Source: Candidatus Aenigmatarchaeota archaeon
GTDB taxonomy: Archaea; Aenigmatarchaeota; Aenigmatarchaeia; CG10238-14; SCSR01
NCBI GenBank assembly: GCA_016198705.1
Contig: JACQIA010000089.1
Coordinates: 1 to 37,021 of the forward strand
Length of the DNA: 37,021 bases
Reading direction: 5' to 3'
The translations under genes were made by a program, and so were the position numbers. This document shows positions 7,236-17,036 of this stretch, one piece after another; positions within the stretch are counted from its first letter, which is position 1; each line of letters opens with the position of its first letter. The notes beneath the pieces were generated by a model. It did not search any database, had not been told where the DNA came from, and saw nothing but the letters and a program-made list of their open reading frames with translations.

Positions 7236-10200
7236 ATGAAGAGGCTTGAAATTGCTCAGATCCTGGTAATTTCTCTTATTCTTTTAGTGCCTTTAGTGTT
7301 GTCACAAGAAACTACAACAACTACAATACCTTCGACGACTACAACTTTACCGCCTGAAACTACAACTACACTACCTTCTACAACTACAATACCTTTTACA
7401 ACAACTACAATAACATCATCATGCCCGCCAGCACCAACACCACCGACATGCTCAGCAAATCAATATTTATATTATAATTATGACAGCCAAGGTTGCTTAA
7501 CAGGATATGAATGCAGAACATCAGCCACAACTACTACAATAGCAACGTCGTCATGTCCTACAGCACCAACACCACCGACATGCACTTCAGGGCAATATTT
7601 GAAATATAATTATGACAGTCAAGGTTGTGTAGTCAGTTATACATGTCAAACCACAATAACATGCCCAACTCCACCTCCGTATCCGACATGCCCATCAGGA
7701 CAGTATGCACAGTCATCTTATGATTCCAACAATTGTGTGATTAGCTATACATGTCAGAGTACAACGTCACAGTGTGGAGATAAAGTATGTAGCGGAGGCG
7801 AAACTCCATCAAGTTGCCCGGGTGATTGTGGAACGAGTACTAGTGAAACATGCGGGAATAATTTTTGTGGAAGTGGTGAAACACCAACATCGTGTGCATC
7901 AGATTGTAGGGTATGTGGTGATGGACCTATATCTTCTTCAGGATGCCAGTGTGGTAGTGTAACGCAATACGGTGGCTATTGCTGTAATAGTGTATTTCAA
8001 TCTTCCGCTTGTGGAACATCAGGAGGATTAAACAATCCTTGTGGAGAAGGACCAATTCCATCATCAGGATGCAATTGCGGTGGGGGGAGTTTTTACAGTG
8101 GTTATTGTTGTTACAATGTTTACCAAGCGAGTGCGTGTACTGGTGTAACAGGAGGATACTGCGGAGATAAGGCATGTAACAATGCTGAAACACCGACAAG
8201 CTGTCCAAGCGATTGCGGTGGTGGAGCAACATGTTCATCTTCAAACTATTGGTATTGCTACGATCAATCCAGTTGTACAGGTGCCGGTGCGAAATGGTGC
8301 TCTAACCAATATAGCGGCGGATACTGTACAAGCACGACATCGACATGCCCATCTTATGTATGCGAATCTAGTAATGTCTGGAATTGCAAAACCGAATCGG
8401 AATGTAAATCGGCAGGGGGCAATTGGTATAATAATTATTGCTCTTCTTCACCACCACCTCAATGTTCATCATCGCAATTATACAACTGCTACGATCAAAC
8501 AAACTGCAAGACTTCTGGTGGCAATTGGTGTAATAATTATTGCACTTCAGCATCATGTCCAACATGCTCGTCATCGCAGAAATACAACTGCTATACAGAG
8601 AGTGAATGCAGTGGCGCTGCTGGCCGATGGTGTGCAACAGGAGGAAATGGCTATTGTTCCGATTCATGCCCAACATGCTCTAAAGATCAACTATGGAACT
8701 GCTATGACGAAACTAGTTGTAAAAGTGAAGCAGGAAATTGGTGTAAATCGCCTGGTACAAATACCGGCTGGTGTTCTTCATCATCATGTCCTTCTTACAC
8801 TTGTGAAAAAGCTAATCCATGGAATTGTTATTCGCAGAGTGATTGTTCAGGTGTAGGTGGCAATTGGTGTGTATCGTCTGGTACAACTACTGGTTGGTGT
8901 TCGTCAACATCATGTCCTACAACATCTATAGGCTATTGTGGCTGGTGTGGTGATAGTTGTACAAGAATTACGCCAACTATGTTCTGCCAAAATGTTGTTC
9001 CTCCTTCAGGCTTCAAGTGCCTGGAAGAAAATGGCGCATGTGTGAAGAAGGCTTATGATTTCAACCCACCTCCAACTTGCCCTGTTGTTCCGGCATTCCA
9101 ACCTTGTCCAGCTGGAGAGTTTTCAAAACCAACATTCGATGTCAACAATTGCATAACCGGCTATAAATGCGTGGCTGAAACTGGTGTTGGATTTTGTCCA
9201 CAAACACCACCGCCAACGATTACATGTTTGCCACCCGACCAGTTGACGAAGGTAACTAATCATGAGGGGTGTGTTATTAACTATTATTGTGCTTCAACCG
9301 GACCGCCTGGTGGGTTATGCCCTAATATTGCAGCATACAAACCTCAGTGTACTGACGGTAGTTTAGTGCCTATTTTCGATAACAATGGATGTTCGATTGG
9401 TTATAACTGCATTCCATCTGGATGTAGACAGGAGACAGACCCAAACACTCAAGTTACCAGAGTTGTTTGCGAGCAGGCAGCTCAATGCCAGTCTCAAGAA
9501 GAGATTTTATCTATTGGCAATAAATGTATTTCGCAGGGAGGTAAGGTTGCATCATTCACTGACTACAGCGGATGCAAATTTATTGACTGCAAGTTTACCG
9601 ACGAGGAAATTCAGCCAGATCCGCTAACAGGACTCACAGAATGTGTAAACCCTACTAAGATAGACAATGCTGTGAAGGCCTGTAAAGCTACTGGATTGTT
9701 CCCTGCAATATCATTTGAAGGCGGATGCAAAGTTGTTAAATGCCTACAGCACAGAGAAGAGAGATGCAAAATACCAACTCCAGATGAGAAAGCCCAATTG
9801 GACAATCAGTGTTCTGCCAAAGGCTTGCCAATAGTTAGAGATTTCAATTCAAATGGTTGTGCGTTCTACAGATGCGGTGAAACACAGGATGATACTTGTG
9901 CAAAAGAAGTGCCTCCAGAAGCTTTCACCAAATGCCAAGCTGTTGGAGGTGAGATGATAGTAAAGAAGGATGATAATTCATGTGTTGTTTATGCTAAATG
10001 CATCACCAGAGGTGATGAAAGGGATTCTTATGTAGAACCTATTGAAGAAGTGCCTGACTCTACTGAATTGCTACAGATTGTATTGAAGCTGGAGCAGTTG
10101 AAAGTTGAGTTACAGAAATTGGCAGACCAAGCAGAAAATATAGCTGCATTTTATGAAGGCAGAGGAGACGACGATGAGGAAAGGTACAACAGAGTTTCAA

Positions 10201-11327
10201 GCATGTTCGAATCTGCTGGTGATAGAATAGATGAAATAAAAGCTAGGATAAGAGACAGCTTAGATTCGTTAACAGTAGAAGATGTGATTGAAATAAAGCG
10301 CGATATCAAACATTTGAAGGATGTTACAGTCAAAGATATTGTCTATTTTATGTTGAGCAACAGTGACGAGGTAAAACAAACGATTAAAGCAAGCAAAAAA
10401 CTTTCTGCTAAAACTGCAAAGATAGAGGATGTTGAAAGGGAAGGAGATAATTGTGGTACTGATGGTTTATGCTTTGACAGGGCGTTTAGAGTTTGTGATC
10501 CTGTGACATTTAAACCTGAAGGTAGCTCTGGACCGACAATTACTGTTGCTGGATTAGACGGGGATGTATGTGTTGTTAAAGCAAGAATGTCTGGAGAGGG
10601 AATTCCTGTAGTTGGTGGTCTGCTTGAGATGACTTGCAGATTTAGCGAATATTCATTTGGTGTATCTGGTCCGCAAGATTTCTTGCCCAACTGTGAAGGA
10701 CCAATGGCTGATATGATGAGACAGTTTGGAGGGCCAGGTGCTGTTACTAGTGGAGCAGAATTTCCACCTCCAGAAGGAGGACCTGGTGGGTGTACAGAAA
10801 TTACGCAGTGTGCGCAATATTGTTTGGATAATTATGATGACTGTGTACAGTGGACGGAAGAACATCCTGCATACGGGTCTCCACCACCAAGAGGCGAACT
10901 TGAAAGAATAGCTAGAGGTGAGTCTCCAGAAGAATTCAAAAGAGGACCCGGTGGATCTAGAGGACCTGTCAGCTTTGAAGGGCCTGGTGGGTGTAAAGGG
11001 CCAAAAGAATGTGATAAATTCTGCAGCAGCAATCCTCAAGTCTGCCAACAATGGTGTGCAGCTAATCCGGATGTTTGTCCGCAGGAGAATTTAAGAGGCC
11101 CGCCTGCTGAACATGAAGAAGGCTTTGGGCAACAGCATGGAGGAATAAAATGCCCAGATGGTATTTGCGACGCATTTGAACAAGCCAATCCAAATGCATG
11201 TCCTCAAGATTGTGGTGGGTTTGGCGTCAGTCAACCTCAAGAAGTGCAAGCGTGCGCTGGTTGTTTGAATAACCATATTTGTGATATTGGGGAATGTAGC
11301 GAATGTATCGATTGTTTAAAAAGGTGA
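7236..11327 (+). CDS. Large secreted Cys-rich repeat protein
   Basis: 1363 residues. A Sec signal peptide (about 1-23, ending VLSQ) is followed by a Thr/Pro linker to about residue 65, probably glycosylated. Several Cys modules follow. One has the form CPxxPxPPTC...YDSxGCxxxYxC and recurs in looser form to about residue 920. CGDxxCxxGETPxSCPxDC occurs three times early and in degenerate form near the C-terminus. CGxGPIxSSGCxCG occurs twice. A WNCYxxSxC module occurs six times (about 332-568). Residues about 944-1040 are a charged coiled coil. The tail has GGPGGC-type modules. No C-terminal membrane anchor is visible. It is probably an extracellular or surface adhesin-like protein. The start follows TATA-like sequence and TTATAAG. 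I do not recognise an exact family. Confidence 0.88.
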   Translation: MKRLEIAQILVISLILLVPLVLSQETTTTTIPSTTTTLPPETTTTLPSTTTIPFTTTTITSSCPPAPTPPTCSANQYLYYNYDSQGCLTGYECRTSATTTTIATSSCPTAPTPPTCTSGQYLKYNYDSQGCVVSYTCQTTITCPTPPPYPTCPSGQYAQSSYDSNNCVISYTCQSTTSQCGDKVCSGGETPSSCPGDCGTSTSETCGNNFCGSGETPTSCASDCRVCGDGPISSSGCQCGSVTQYGGYCCNSVFQSSACGTSGGLNNPCGEGPIPSSGCNCGGGSFYSGYCCYNVYQASACTGVTGGYCGDKACNNAETPTSCPSDCGGGATCSSSNYWYCYDQSSCTGAGAKWCSNQYSGGYCTSTTSTCPSYVCESSNVWNCKTESECKSAGGNWYNNYCSSSPPPQCSSSQLYNCYDQTNCKTSGGNWCNNYCTSASCPTCSSSQKYNCYTESECSGAAGRWCATGGNGYCSDSCPTCSKDQLWNCYDETSCKSEAGNWCKSPGTNTGWCSSSSCPSYTCEKANPWNCYSQSDCSGVGGNWCVSSGTTTGWCSSTSCPTTSIGYCGWCGDSCTRITPTMFCQNVVPPSGFKCLEENGACVKKAYDFNPPPTCPVVPAFQPCPAGEFSKPTFDVNNCITGYKCVAETGVGFCPQTPPPTITCLPPDQLTKVTNHEGCVINYYCASTGPPGGLCPNIAAYKPQCTDGSLVPIFDNNGCSIGYNCIPSGCRQETDPNTQVTRVVCEQAAQCQSQEEILSIGNKCISQGGKVASFTDYSGCKFIDCKFTDEEIQPDPLTGLTECVNPTKIDNAVKACKATGLFPAISFEGGCKVVKCLQHREERCKIPTPDEKAQLDNQCSAKGLPIVRDFNSNGCAFYRCGETQDDTCAKEVPPEAFTKCQAVGGEMIVKKDDNSCVVYAKCITRGDERDSYVEPIEEVPDSTELLQIVLKLEQLKVELQKLADQAENIAAFYEGRGDDDEERYNRVSSMFESAGDRIDEIKARIRDSLDSLTVEDVIEIKRDIKHLKDVTVKDIVYFMLSNSDEVKQTIKASKKLSAKTAKIEDVEREGDNCGTDGLCFDRAFRVCDPVTFKPEGSSGPTITVAGLDGDVCVVKARMSGEGIPVVGGLLEMTCRFSEYSFGVSGPQDFLPNCEGPMADMMRQFGGPGAVTSGAEFPPPEGGPGGCTEITQCAQYCLDNYDDCVQWTEEHPAYGSPPPRGELERIARGESPEEFKRGPGGSRGPVSFEGPGGCKGPKECDKFCSSNPQVCQQWCAANPDVCPQENLRGPPAEHEEGFGQQHGGIKCPDGICDAFEQANPNACPQDCGGFGVSQPQEVQACAGCLNNHICDIGECSECIDCLKR
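8230..8935 (+). repeat. Six tandem copies of a WNCY-type Cys module within the large secreted protein
   Basis: Six coding repeats of about 35-42 residues, each of the form C-[ES]-x-x-x-x-[WY]-x-C-[YK]-x-[EQ]-[ST]-x-C-x-x-x-G-x-x-W-C...YC or WC, joined by short Ser/Cys/Pro-Thr spacers. Copies differ at the DNA level but keep the Cys and Trp positions. This indicates old duplication under selection for disulfide pattern rather than a recent array expansion. Confidence 0.8.
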
Positions 11328-13895: not shown

Positions 13896-14564
13896 ATGAT
13901 TAAAGCGGTATTGTTTGATTTAGATAATACATTGATAGATTTTATGAAGATGAAGAAAAGAGCTACAGATGCTGCTATTGCTGCGATGATCAAAGCGGGG
14001 TTGAAAATAAGCAAAAAAGATGGACGGGAATTGTTGGATAAGTTGTTTCGCAAGCACGGCTTAGAATATCAGCAAATATTCAATGAATTTTTGACAGAAA
14101 TTTTGGGATATGTGGATTTGAAGATTTTAGCTGGTGCTGTCGTTGCTTATAGAAGTGTAAAGGGTGATTTATTGCAGTCCTATGCAAATGTAAAACCTGT
14201 TTTAAAGAAACTAAAGAAAAAAGGCTATAAGCTTGGGATAGTCACCGATGCACCGAAGTTTCAAGCTTGGACAAGACTTTATGAGATGAAGTTGGAAAAA
14301 TATTTTGATATTGTAGTTACCTTGGATGATTCTGGCAGTTTGAAGCATACAGGATTGCCGTTTGAAAGGGCTATAGACATGCTTGGAATAAAGCCAAATG
14401 AAATTCTTATGGTTGGTGATTGGATCAGCAGAGATATAATACCTGCAAACAAGCAGGGCATGAAGACTGTTTTGGCAAAATACGGGCAATGGAAAATACA
14501 AATAGGGAATTTTAAAGCTGATTTTGAAATTGATGATATAAATGAACTTCTAAAGATTTTATAA
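13896..14564 (+). CDS. HAD-superfamily hydrolase (subfamily IA)
   Basis: A 222-residue phosphatase-like protein. Motif I is VLFDLDNTLID (D8 nucleophile, D10 acid/base), followed by a helical cap. Motif II is GIVTDAP, motif III is SLKHTGLPFERA with the Lys, and motif IV is MVGDWISRDI. The layout matches archaeal haloacid-dehalogenase phosphatases of the TIGR02253 type that act on small phosphorylated metabolites; the substrate cannot be told. The chosen ATG has AGGTG five bases upstream. An in-frame upstream extension is possible but has no ribosome binding site and no HAD-like sequence. A TATA-like element near 13839 fits a short leader. Confidence 0.9.
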   Translation: MIKAVLFDLDNTLIDFMKMKKRATDAAIAAMIKAGLKISKKDGRELLDKLFRKHGLEYQQIFNEFLTEILGYVDLKILAGAVVAYRSVKGDLLQSYANVKPVLKKLKKKGYKLGIVTDAPKFQAWTRLYEMKLEKYFDIVVTLDDSGSLKHTGLPFERAIDMLGIKPNEILMVGDWISRDIIPANKQGMKTVLAKYGQWKIQIGNFKADFEIDDINELLKIL

Positions 14565-14578
14565 CAAACTTATCTAAA

Positions 14579-15397
14579 TTATGCTAACTCTATTAACAAT
14601 TCAGTAAGATATCCGATTACAATTCCTAAAAATAATCCCATCATCAAAATATCATTTGACGTCTGCCTTCTTCCCGCATGGTACATGGACATGGCAACAT
14701 ACAGCAAAGCGCCGGCTGCAACGGACAAGAACAGCACATAAATTAAGGTAGATGACCAAAAACTGCCTATTATCGTTCCTATGAAAGTTGGTGTGCCGCC
14801 AATAAATCCGGCTAATACAAGAAAACTTGTACGAGGTTTAAGACCTGTTAAGGGGGCTGCAATGCCGAAACCCTCTGTTGCATTGTGCATTGCAAAACCG
14901 AGTGCTAAAAGCAATGCCAAGTTGACAGCGCCTGATGCATAACCTTGTCCGATTGCCAAACCTTCACTAAAGTTGTGTATGCCAATTCCAATTGCTATCA
15001 TTAATGCAAGGCGGTAAGCATCTCGCACTTCTAATTTCCTTTTATGCGCTAAAGACAAATGTCGCAGTTCAGAAGATACAGGTTCAATAAATTTTCTCTC
15101 ATACCAAACTAAGCTCAATAGACCTGCGCCAAATCCACCTAAAAATGCAGCTAAAAACAATATCGGCTCATTAAACATTCCGGTCTTGACTGCACTTTTC
15201 AACACATCTTCAACTTCCTCGCCCGCATGCGAGAAAACTTCTATCAAAAGGAAGATAATTATCCCGATGGCAATCGCATTAAGAAAACCTTTTTTGTTGG
15301 CGCTAACATTTTGTAAGGTGGCTATTGGCAAACCTAGGAATATAGTAAAGCCTGCCAGAGCTCCCAAAACCAATAATTGGATAAAATCTAACGGCAT
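14579..15397 (-). CDS. ZIP-family divalent metal transporter
   Basis: 272 residues with about eight membrane helices. The two paired metal-binding motifs of the family are clear: HNFSEGLAIG at 141-150 (TM4) and HNATEGFGIAAP at 171-182 (TM5). ZIP proteins import Zn, Fe or Mn into the cytoplasm; the metal is not decided by sequence. The gene follows a 54-codon membrane protein with a 3-base gap, and both lie downstream of two TTAGGCTGGCCTAA operators shared with a divergent DtxR-family repressor. Metal-dependent repression of this transporter is therefore strongly suggested. Confidence 0.94.
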   Translation of the reverse strand: MPLDFIQLLVLGALAGFTIFLGLPIATLQNVSANKKGFLNAIAIGIIIFLLIEVFSHAGEEVEDVLKSAVKTGMFNEPILFLAAFLGGFGAGLLSLVWYERKFIEPVSSELRHLSLAHKRKLEVRDAYRLALMIAIGIGIHNFSEGLAIGQGYASGAVNLALLLALGFAMHNATEGFGIAAPLTGLKPRTSFLVLAGFIGGTPTFIGTIIGSFWSSTLIYVLFLSVAAGALLYVAMSMYHAGRRQTSNDILMMGLFLGIVIGYLTELLIELA

Positions 15398-15400
15398 TGC

Positions 15401-15565
15401 TTATCCTCTTGAGTTAAGAATATCAAGAATTTCTTTTATGGTAAAGAAGATTCCAACAAGCAATGTTGCAGTTGCTCCTAATCCTTGTCCCTGAAAGCCT
15501 GTATTTGCTAAAAACAAACCTATGGCTATTCCAACTATACTGAGCAAGATAAATATTCCACCCAT
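15401..15565 (-). CDS. 54-residue membrane protein preceding the ZIP transporter
   Basis: A small frame with ATG preceded by an excellent ribosome binding site (GGAGTGAT, three bases before the start). It encodes MGGIFILLSIVGIAIGLFLA, a Gly/Gln loop (NTGFQGQGLG) and a second hydrophobic segment (TATLLVGIFFTI), ending in a charged tail. The two predicted helices suggest a hairpin in the membrane. The stop is three bases before the ZIP start, so the two are translated together. It may be a small regulatory or stabilising subunit of the transporter; no family is recognised. Confidence 0.75.
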   Translation of the reverse strand: MGGIFILLSIVGIAIGLFLANTGFQGQGLGATATLLVGIFFTIKEILDILNSRG

Positions 15566-15577
15566 CGTATCACTCCA

Positions 15578-15591
15578 TTAGGCTGGCCTAA
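15578..15591. promoter_or_regulatory. DtxR/IdeR-type operator, copy 1
   Basis: TTAGGCTGGCCTAA, with arms TTAGGC and GCCTAA as inverted repeats around a central TG. It matches the TTAGG...CCTAA form of known DtxR/IdeR operators. It lies 12 bases upstream of the small membrane protein start, so a bound repressor would block the ZIP operon. The identical core recurs at 15629. Confidence 0.82.
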
Positions 15592-15617
15592 TTTCTAGAA
15601 TATAATTATCATACAAG

Positions 15618-15627
15618 TATTTAAATA
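15618..15627. promoter_or_regulatory. Palindromic TATA box between the two operators
   Basis: TATTTAAATA is a perfect palindrome and so can serve as box A in either direction. It lies about 38 bases before the DtxR-like ATG and about 57 before the ZIP-operon ATG. It sits one base from operator copy 2, so TBP and repressor would compete. Confidence 0.6.
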
Positions 15628-15628
15628 T

Positions 15629-15642
15629 TTAGGCTGGCCTAA
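15629..15642. promoter_or_regulatory. DtxR/IdeR-type operator, copy 2
   Basis: A second exact TTAGGCTGGCCTAA. The identity with copy 1 extends over 18 bases (TTAGGCTGGCCTAATTTC). Centre-to-centre spacing is 51 bases, close to five helical turns, so both sites face the same side of the DNA. It is 18 bases before the repressor ATG, implying autoregulation. Confidence 0.82.
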
Positions 15643-15660
15643 TTTCATTAGTTTGATAGT

Positions 15661-16122
15661 ATGGAAAAATCTTCGAGCAAACCAGCATACGTTGAACACC
15701 TGTTTATTGAGCCTGTAGAGACAGAGCATTCTGAAATGTATGTTAAAGCAATCTATCTGCTAAAGGAGTCTGAAGAAATACCAGCCAAAGTGAAATCCAT
15801 TGCCAAACTTTTGAATGTGTCTGCCCCCAGTGTTGTTGAGATGCTGAAGAGATTGAATGCGTTAGGTCTTGTTAAATATACGCGAAATGGGGCTATACTG
15901 ACTAAAAAGGGGTTGGATGTGGGAAGAAGGATAATAAGGAATTACAGACTGGTAGAAGCTTTGATGGCAATGAAATTCAAAATACCTGTTGATGAAAGGA
16001 TAGCGTGTGGTATAGAGCATCTGATGACAGAAAAATTCTCTGAAGCTCTTTGCACATTGATTAAACATCCAAAAAAATGTCCCCATGGATTTTCTATACC
16101 CTTGGGCAAATGCTGCAAATAG
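15661..16122 (+). CDS. DtxR/MntR-family metal-dependent repressor
   Basis: 153 residues. A winged helix domain (about 24-85; recognition region LLNVSAPSVVEMLKRL) is followed by a dimerisation and metal-binding domain. Metal ligands of the DtxR/IdeR kind are visible: M26 in the EMYVKAIY helix and C116, E119, H120 in ACGIEHLMTEKF. The C-terminus, with CPHG and CC, adds possible metal-binding residues and no SH3-like domain follows. It should repress its own gene and the divergent ZIP operon through the two identical operators when Fe or Mn is abundant. The start is ATG with no ribosome binding site, fitting a nearly leaderless message. Confidence 0.93.
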   Translation: MEKSSSKPAYVEHLFIEPVETEHSEMYVKAIYLLKESEEIPAKVKSIAKLLNVSAPSVVEMLKRLNALGLVKYTRNGAILTKKGLDVGRRIIRNYRLVEALMAMKFKIPVDERIACGIEHLMTEKFSEALCTLIKHPKKCPHGFSIPLGKCCK

Positions 16123-16193: not shown

Positions 16194-17036
16194 TTGGTTC
16201 GTACTATAGGAGTTGTTTCTGGAAAAGGTGGCGTGGGCAAAACAACTGTGGCGGTAAACTTGGCTTACGCGCTTAGAAATTATGGACAAAAAGTTACCTT
16301 AGTCGATTGCAATCTATCAACCCCGCATATGGCTTATTATATAGGCACATCGGATTACAAATATACCTTGAATGATGTACTTCTAGGAAAGGTGGATATC
16401 ATATCTGCGTTGCATAATTTCGACGGCATTAGGCACATACCAGCATCATTGAATTTAAAAGACATAATAGGTATTGATCCGATAAAATTGAAGAAACATC
16501 TGAAACCTTTGGAAGTGCCCAGCAAGGTTGATTTTATTATTTTAGATTCAGCTCCTGGATTGGGTAGAGAGGCTTTGGCTGTGTTGGATGCTGCTGACGA
16601 ACTTTTATTTGTAACAACACCGTTTTCGCCCATGCTAAACGACGTAATAAGATGCAGGGATGTTTTGAGGGAAATAAAGGGGGATAAGACTTTGAATATG
16701 GTTTTGAACATGGTAATGGGAGAGAAGCATGAATTGCATTACAAGACTATAGCAGATGTGGTCAACATACCAATAATAGGCCAAATATCTTATGACAAGA
16801 GCGTACTGCACAGTTTAGTTTCCAAATCACCGGTTGTAGCCTATAAACCAAAATCTTTTGCAAGCATAGGTTTTATGGAACTTGCCGCTACATTAACCAA
16901 TAAAGAATTCAAAGTCCCAATGAGGTTCAGACTGCATAAAATGCTGAATAAAGTAAAAAATTCTATACTGCCATCCAGCTTTTCTTTGCCCACATCTCCT
17001 GATGAAATAAAGGAAGATATTTCGCAAGGTAACTGA
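16194..17036 (+). CDS. MinD/ParA-type P-loop ATPase
   Basis: 280 residues of the MinD/Mrp/ParA group. The deviant Walker A SGKGGVGKTT (residues 9-18, with the signature K11) and DCNLSTPHMAYYIG are present. A Walker B-like stretch IILDSAPGLGRE and VTTPFSPMLNDV follow. A C-terminal helix (RLHKMLNKVKNSIL) could be a membrane-targeting amphipathic segment. Start is TTG with GTGAT four bases upstream; no closer ATG fits the family N-terminus. It is followed after three bases by a four-helix membrane protein, and the pair probably works at the membrane, as in positioning systems. No MinC or MinE is nearby. Confidence 0.92.
   Translation: MVRTIGVVSGKGGVGKTTVAVNLAYALRNYGQKVTLVDCNLSTPHMAYYIGTSDYKYTLNDVLLGKVDIISALHNFDGIRHIPASLNLKDIIGIDPIKLKKHLKPLEVPSKVDFIILDSAPGLGREALAVLDAADELLFVTTPFSPMLNDVIRCRDVLREIKGDKTLNMVLNMVMGEKHELHYKTIADVVNIPIIGQISYDKSVLHSLVSKSPVVAYKPKSFASIGFMELAATLTNKEFKVPMRFRLHKMLNKVKNSILPSSFSLPTSPDEIKEDISQGN

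What the first reader, a model, noticed from the sequence alone, without database searches (positions are those of the whole stretch)
15401..16122. Twin identical DtxR operators around a palindromic TATA box control ZIP operon and repressor
Two copies of TTAGGCTGGCCTAA, identical over 18 bases and 51 bases apart, flank the palindrome TATTTAAATA between divergent DtxR and ZIP operons. Repressor dimers on the same DNA face could cooperate to shut both directions. The site gives an exact motif for finding the whole regulon.
Basis: partly seen in the sequence, partly recalled or inferred. Interest (0 to 1): 0.56.

Follow-up and report, generated by a model that had tools for sequence, protein, structure and literature searches.

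The report
Captured switch for metal uptake
A small-genome archaeon carries a metal importer and, facing the other way, a metal-sensing repressor, with two identical repressor landing sites between them; the genes, sites and promoter layout look acquired from relatives of ammonia-oxidizing archaea, which gives a testable clue to how that abundant group controls metal (probably iron) uptake.

Summary
TTAGGCTGGCCTAA lies at 15578-15591 and 15629-15642, identical over 18 bases, 51 apart, with TATTTAAATA between, in the 95-bp gap between a DtxR gene and a small-ORF/ZIP operon. No other exact TTAGGNNNNCCTAA exists in the 1.08-Mb genome. The site equals the published one-dimer IdeR/DtxR consensus, so a metal-dependent repressor that controls itself and a ZIP importer is well supported, though untested biochemically. 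New here: both proteins are closest (about 50-58%) to Nitrososphaeria proteins and absent from the other 15 family genomes; trees nest both in Nitrososphaeria; native syntenic genes flank the block, so it is lateral capture, not a chimeric contig. In Nitrososphaeria the same ZIP promoter carries twin operators in 19 of 33 scored loci, and the motif also precedes FTR1 iron permease-DtxR operons and a ferritin, pointing to iron. The regulator's subfamily lacks a histidine kept by 20 of 20 other homologues and has seven invariant Cys/His positions instead. Corrections: the operators sit asymmetrically about the TATA box; same-face cooperation is untested; the regulon is apparently this gap alone. 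Verdict: real, a new variant of the DtxR/IdeR kind.

The parts
14579..15397 (-). ZIP-family metal importer, 272 aa
   Evidence: PF02535 1.8e-15; full-length matches of up to 57-58% identity in Nitrososphaeria; no match in the other 15 genomes of its family
15401..15565 (-). 54-aa hydrophobic small ORF, first gene of the ZIP operon (3 bases before the ZIP start)
   Evidence: ORF; no Pfam match; no relative in the loci held; gene status inferred from spacing and a Shine-Dalgarno-like sequence
15571..15576 (-). GGAGTG, Shine-Dalgarno-like, before the small ORF
   Evidence: read from sequence; inference
15578..15591 (.). operator 1, TTAGGCTGGCCTAA, ZIP side
15598..15607 (-). AATTATATTC, possible weak second TATA box for the ZIP direction
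   Evidence: read from sequence; Nitrososphaeria ZIP promoters have a second TATA (TTTAAATA) before their second operator; inference
15618..15627 (.). palindromic TATA box TATTTAAATA, 1 bp from operator 2
   Evidence: aligns with TATTTAAAC of Nitrososphaeria ZIP promoters
15629..15642 (.). operator 2, TTAGGCTGGCCTAA, DtxR side
15661..16122 (+). DtxR-family metal-dependent repressor, 153 aa, no SH3/FeoA domain, Cys/His-rich C-terminus
   Evidence: PF01325 3e-15, PF02742 1.4e-17; Nitrososphaeria subfamily
13899..14564 (+). native flank: HAD hydrolase
   Evidence: PF13419; 61% identical and in synteny in family genome G010
16194..17036 (+). native flank: MinD/ParA-type ATPase
   Evidence: PF10609; matches in 16 of 16 family genomes, itself included, up to 55% identity in the others

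Best explanation
This is a self-contained metal-uptake switch. When enough divalent metal (most likely Fe2+) is in the cell, the metal-loaded DtxR-type repressor binds as one dimer at each 14-bp operator. Operator 2 abuts the only strong TATA box: it should block TFB/TBP or RNA polymerase for the repressor gene (site between TATA and start) and, because it covers the BRE side, for the ZIP operon too; operator 1 lies near the predicted ZIP start and adds a second block. When metal falls, the repressor leaves, the ZIP importer is made, and the repressor is remade for a fast reset. Regulator, importer and promoter were acquired from a Nitrososphaeria-like archaeon and set between two native genes; the repressor came to lie beside its target and under its own operator. 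Shown: the sites, their uniqueness in the genome, protein families, homology, conservation of motif and twin-site layout, lateral origin. Inferred: binding, metal, transcription starts, repression and feedback.
For: The site equals the one-dimer IdeR/DtxR consensus and is found without mismatch nowhere else in the genome. The protein has both DtxR domains and C116/E119/H120; its fold matches MntR and IdeR. Independent conservation: 19 of 33 scored Nitrososphaeria ZIP loci carry two sites 72-76 (once 96) bp apart, 3 carry tandem sites, 2 one, 9 none; over those loci as a whole 52 sites against 5 for the backwards control. Across 250 Nitrososphaeria genomes TTAGGCNNGCCTAA has 77 sites against 10 for the backwards control, or 53 against 10 without one repeat-rich genome (sums are mine). 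Autoregulation-type placement: sites at the start of the DtxR gene in 8 of 10 loci of the wider class, and before FTR1-DtxR operons (L192, L201). Iron: FTR1 (PF03239) and ferritin (PF00210) next to sites; no FeoB in the genome. Lateral origin; native synteny on both sides.
Against: No binding, expression or metal data exist. The nearest Nitrososphaeria DtxR genes (L038, L039 and most of L088-L117) carry no such site in front of them (the printout was cut for two loci), so their link to the motif rests on co-occurrence plus a few FTR1- or ZIP-linked cases. Only 32 of 250 Nitrososphaeria genomes hold the exact TTAGGCNNGCCTAA; 9 of 33 scored ZIP loci have no site. Many of those genomes have more than one DtxR match, and a paralogue could be the real binder there. 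ZIP transporters also carry Zn and Mn, and an ABC-3 transporter lies beside one such locus.
Confidence: 0.8

Rival explanations
1. Same switch, but the signal is Mn2+ or Zn2+ (MntR/SloR-like), not iron.
For: Best sequence matches among solved structures are the Mn regulators SloR and ScaR; ZIP and the ABC-3 neighbour of one relative can carry Mn/Zn; no SH3 domain, as in MntR.
Against: Operators of the same motif precede FTR1 iron permease-DtxR operons and lie beside a ferritin gene. C116 stands at the place of the Cys of iron-type DtxR (assignment recalled).
Confidence: 0.25
2. Only operator 2 is functional; operator 1 is a passive duplicate and 'twin' adds nothing.
For: Operator 2 alone touches the TATA box, on the BRE side for ZIP and downstream of it for dtxR; some relatives manage with one site (L173, L189).
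Against: Twin sites flank the same promoter in 19 of 33 scored Nitrososphaeria ZIP loci with narrow spacing, and the two window copies are identical over 18 bases.
Confidence: 0.15
3. The block is a misassembled piece of a Nitrososphaeria contig.
For: Both proteins look Nitrososphaeria-like and both are missing in 15 of 15 other family genomes.
Against: Native, syntenic genes on both sides (PD-D/EXK, HAD, MinD, membrane protein as in G010), similar G+C through the region, and no full-length Nitrososphaeria relative closer than about 58%.
Confidence: 0.03

Closest known systems
IdeR/DtxR iron regulators of Actinobacteria (PMC8464063, passages)
   Same: Winged-helix plus metal/dimerisation domains; 14-bp TTAGGNNNNCCTAA bound by one dimer; control of metal uptake
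   Different: No SH3 domain; lacks the histidine at position 95; Cys/His-rich C-terminus; archaeal TATA/BRE promoter; apparently a single target region
MntR / SloR / ScaR manganese regulators
   Same: Best hits in the PDB by sequence (SloR, ScaR) and fold (MntR); the CPHG motif is shared with SloR/ScaR
   Different: Operator is of IdeR type; extra C131, C151, C152; links to FTR1 and ferritin in relatives
Archaeal MDR1 of Archaeoglobus fulgidus (recalled; the search found no paper)
   Same: DtxR-type repressor, autoregulated by operators next to an archaeal promoter (recalled)
   Different: There it belongs to an ABC-transporter operon (recalled); here it is divergent from ZIP with two identical single-dimer sites
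Divergent DtxR / multicopper oxidase-ZIP(-Nramp) loci of the same class (G046, G052, G039, G102)
   Same: DtxR divergent from a ZIP operon with a TTAGN6CTAA dyad in the gap
   Different: Different DtxR and ZIP subfamilies, an MCO gene between, a different dyad

Membership tests
DtxR/IdeR family | N-terminal winged helix and C-terminal metal/dimerisation domain | tested here: met
   PF01325 and PF02742 above cut-off
DtxR/IdeR family | primary metal-site ligands (the CxxEH motif) | tested here: met
   C116, E119, H120; C116 in 33 of 33 Nitrososphaeria rows and 14 of 20 others, E119 and H120 in all 53; that these are the primary ligands is recalled
DtxR/IdeR family | ancillary-site histidine (DtxR H79 / MntR H77; assignment recalled) | tested here: not met
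   Y95 in the window, S/T/G in 33 of 33 Nitrososphaeria rows, H in 20 of 20 others
DtxR/IdeR family | TTAGGNNNNCCTAA operator at regulated promoters | tested here: met
   two exact sites, none elsewhere in the genome; consensus from PMC8464063
IdeR subtype | third, SH3-like domain | tested here: not met
   153 aa, no further domain
DtxR/IdeR family | metal-dependent DNA binding and repression | not testable with these tools
   needs EMSA and expression
ZIP transporters | ZIP domain with paired HNxxEG motifs (motif recalled) | tested here: met
   PF02535; HNFSEG and HNATEG in the translation

The most novel reading that the evidence does not exclude
The regulator is the founding case of a distinct DtxR class that serves as the iron regulator of Nitrososphaeria (ammonia-oxidizing archaea included). 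It has rebuilt its second metal site from H23, C131, H136, C140, H142, C151 and C152 (all invariant in 33 of 33 relatives compared, 0 or 1 of 20 other homologues), and so senses metal, or metal plus redox state, in a way unlike IdeR or MntR. Regulator, importer and twin-operator promoter can move between archaeal lineages as one working iron switch, here closed into an autoregulated unit with one target.
Probability: 0.35. Interest if true: 0.65.

Novelty: new variant of a known kind. Interest (0 to 1): 0.5.

Why it matters
Ammonia-oxidizing archaea are among the most abundant microbes (recalled). A passage in PMC6776035 says that Nitrosopumilus maritimus lacks known iron-specific transporters and seems to have only generalist ZIP and Tro-type ones; how these are regulated was not found in the searches made. 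This locus supplies a motif, a promoter layout and a regulator subfamily that can be tested at once, and a clear case in which a regulator, its target and its operators moved between archaeal lineages.

Tried and rejected
Regulon search: the exact and one-mismatch TTAGGCNNGCCTAA motif finds nothing beyond this gap. One search opened 20 loci around looser near-sites (from; not all near-sites were opened). Four (L077, L078, L083, L085) could not be judged because the script read a fixed position that was not the site. Of the other 16, 12 sites lie inside an open frame of at least 60 aa and 4 (L003, L074, L076, L084) do not; no metal gene was recognised by eye among the frames printed. No further regulon member is claimed.

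Operator in the two nearest named relatives: no site in L038 or L039; their DtxR follows directly on another regulator gene (TrmB-like by eye).

Structure: the AlphaFold model (mean pLDDT 72, C-terminal tail mostly below 50) is too poor to place the Cys/His residues, so no geometry is claimed; the fold search only confirms the family.

Helical phasing: spacings of 51, 72-76 and 96 bp are all near whole turns, but they are about three independent cases, and the tandem form (14 bp, 1.33 turns) does not fit. Left as suggestive.

Alignment A2: the L158 row was a wrong stretch (my coordinate error) and is ignored; the other seven rows are used.

Name of the host phylum: not told by any search. The small genome (1.08 Mb) suggests a DPANN-type archaeon, but this was not tested; group labels 'DPANN' in my scripts are only shorthand.

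Bias: the 33 Nitrososphaeria DtxR rows are mostly the best matches to the window protein (30 loci fetched, of 240 genomes with a match, plus L038, L039 and later stretches, duplicates dropped), so invariance is stated for that set only.

Full report
What is there. The 95-bp gap 15566-15660 separates a rightward gene for a 153-aa DtxR-family protein (15661-16122) from a leftward operon of a 54-aa hydrophobic small ORF (15401-15565) and a 272-aa ZIP transporter (14579-15397). It holds two copies of TTAGGCTGGCCTAA (15578-15591, 15629-15642), identical over 18 bases, 51 apart, with TATTTAAATA at 15618-15627. The TATA box is 1 bp from operator 2 and 26 bp from operator 1. Shuffles of the gap never gave a direct repeat above 11 bases (2000 shuffles).

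Uniqueness. In the host genome (1,083,303 bases, 96.8% complete) TTAGGNNNNCCTAA without mismatch occurs at these two places only; TTAGGCNNGCCTAA with up to one mismatch likewise. With up to two mismatches the count is 32 against 22 for the backwards control. The motif is therefore not a sequence found at random inside genes, and the 'regulon' in this genome is probably this one gap.

Family of the site. Passages of PMC8464063 state that one IdeR dimer can bind half of the 19-bp target and suggest redefining the consensus as TTAGGNNNNCCTAA. The window sites equal it. In the wider class, 8 of 10 DtxR loci examined (L012, L013, L014, L022, L023, L024, L026, L029; not L025, L027) have such a site at the start of the DtxR gene. 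Four other loci of the class (L069-L072) show a different DtxR divergent from a multicopper oxidase-ZIP operon with a TTAGN6CTAA dyad in the gap (two of the four dyads read by eye from the printed sequence).

Lateral origin. The DtxR is found in 1 of 16 family genomes, itself; elsewhere in the phylum the strongest match has 39% identity (27 of 156 genomes match at all, the host included). The nearest named relatives are a Nitrososphaerota and a Nitrosopumilaceae MAG, 52% and 50%, and of 250 genomes of that class 240 have a match, the best 53-57% identical. The ZIP has no match in the other 15 family genomes (20 of 156 in the phylum, the host included) but full-length matches of 52-57% in Nitrososphaeria (195 of 250 genomes match at all, most of them only weakly). 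Maximum-likelihood trees place both proteins inside the Nitrososphaeria set (DtxR: fork 98/94, with the FTR1-linked L112/L192 outside. ZIP: fork 98/89, with L188/L198 outside); the window branches are long (0.69, 0.47), so the exact donor is open. The contig itself is native: the MinD neighbour matches in 16 of 16 family genomes, and in G010 the order PD-D/EXK, HAD, MinD, membrane protein is the same, with two small ORFs but no DtxR or ZIP between HAD and MinD. G+C is even across the region.

The promoter came along. In Nitrososphaeria the orthologous ZIP gene is often divergent from a small HTH gene, and its promoter reads operator, TATTTAAAC, spacer, second TATA, operator, ATG. Of 34 ZIP loci examined, 33 could be scored: 19 have two sites 72-76 bp apart (once 96), 3 have two sites in tandem at 14 bp, 2 have one, 9 have none; L180 gave no frame. 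The window promoter aligns with it (seven usable rows of eight, the window included) but lacks about 21 columns that hold the second TATA box, so the remaining, now palindromic, TATA box may serve both directions; a weak alternative TATA for ZIP at 15598-15607 cannot be excluded. Across 250 Nitrososphaeria genomes TTAGGCNNGCCTAA occurs 77 times, in 32 genomes, against 10 for the backwards control; without G290, which has 24 copies that look like a repeat, 53 against 10 (sums made by me).

Which metal. Tandem operators stand before an FTR1 iron permease followed by a DtxR of this subfamily (L192 in G365; L201 in G359) and a site stands 47 bp before a ferritin gene (L195). An ABC-3 transporter lies beside the DtxR in G359. 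The host genome has no FeoB by PF07664. Iron is the best guess; Mn or Zn is not excluded.

The regulator is a variant. Against 33 Nitrososphaeria and 20 other archaeal homologues, the window protein shares with all 33 the residues H23, C131, H136, C140, H142, C151 and C152 (0 of 20 others; 1 of 20 for H136), while the histidine kept by 20 of 20 others at position 95 is Y here and S, T or G in the 33. C116, E119 and H120 are kept. By my recollection position 95 corresponds to DtxR H79/MntR H77, and in ScaR the Cys and His of CPHG bind metal; neither comes from a call. The model was too weak in the tail to test this.

Mechanism. Shown: sites, uniqueness, homology, conserved twin layout. Inferred: with the TATA box at 15618-15627, starts near 15648 (dtxR) and 15597 (ZIP operon) put operator 2 between TATA and the dtxR start and on the BRE side of ZIP, and operator 1 just inside the ZIP transcript. 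Metal-loaded repressor would then shut both; loss of metal opens both. Same-face cooperation fits the spacing (4.86 turns; relatives 6.86-7.24 and 9.14) but is not tested.

Novelty. The kind (DtxR-type repressor with TTAGG/CCTAA operators, autoregulated and controlling metal uptake) is known. New, as far as the searches show (search listings only; of the papers, passages of PMC6776035 and PMC8464063 were read), are the Nitrososphaeria motif with twin sites at ZIP, the Cys/His-rich subfamily, and its capture as a one-target unit.

Noticed in passing
L129 (genome G290): A genome of the Nitrososphaeria class has 24 exact TTAGGCNNGCCTAA sites (the 16 listed are TTAGGCTGGCCTAA or its complement, identical to the window operator), apparently in a dispersed repeat.
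   Followed up: no
L192:820-847; L182:1993-2020; L183:1892-1919; L193:1455-1482: In other Nitrososphaeria genomes the operator is a 28-bp head-to-tail double site TTAGGN4CCTAATTAGGN4CCTAA; in L193 it is a perfect 28-bp palindrome next to TATTTAAAC.
   Followed up: partly
L190:1433, L191:1484, L199:2623: The site abuts or overlaps the start of a secreted-looking protein with repeats (by eye) that lies directly before a second ZIP gene; it may be a further target.
   Followed up: no
L194:1475, L151:1501: Exact sites next to a TATA-like sequence ahead of a SUI1 translation-factor gene (PF01253 for L194) in two genomes; reason unknown.
   Followed up: no
L071:2017-2034: In a class relative the TATA region between DtxR and the multicopper oxidase-ZIP-Nramp operon is a long palindrome ACGCTTAAATATAAGCGT, again a palindromic TATA at a divergent metal promoter.
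   Followed up: partly
window 15401-15565; L202:1906-2236: The 54-aa hydrophobic ORF has no relative found; in G010 two other hydrophobic ORFs of about 50 aa lie at the same place and orientation between HAD and MinD, so it may be native rather than transferred.
   Followed up: partly
L042:5549, L043:5545, L044:4718, L045:5553, L047:5392: In Methanosarcinales/ANME-type relatives a TTAGGG...CCTAA-type site lies 70-90 bp downstream of the DtxR gene, ahead of the next gene.
   Followed up: no
window 7236-11327: A 1363-aa Cys-rich, apparently exported protein with an internal direct repeat of at least 18 bp (7429/7561); parts are conserved in several family genomes.
   Followed up: no
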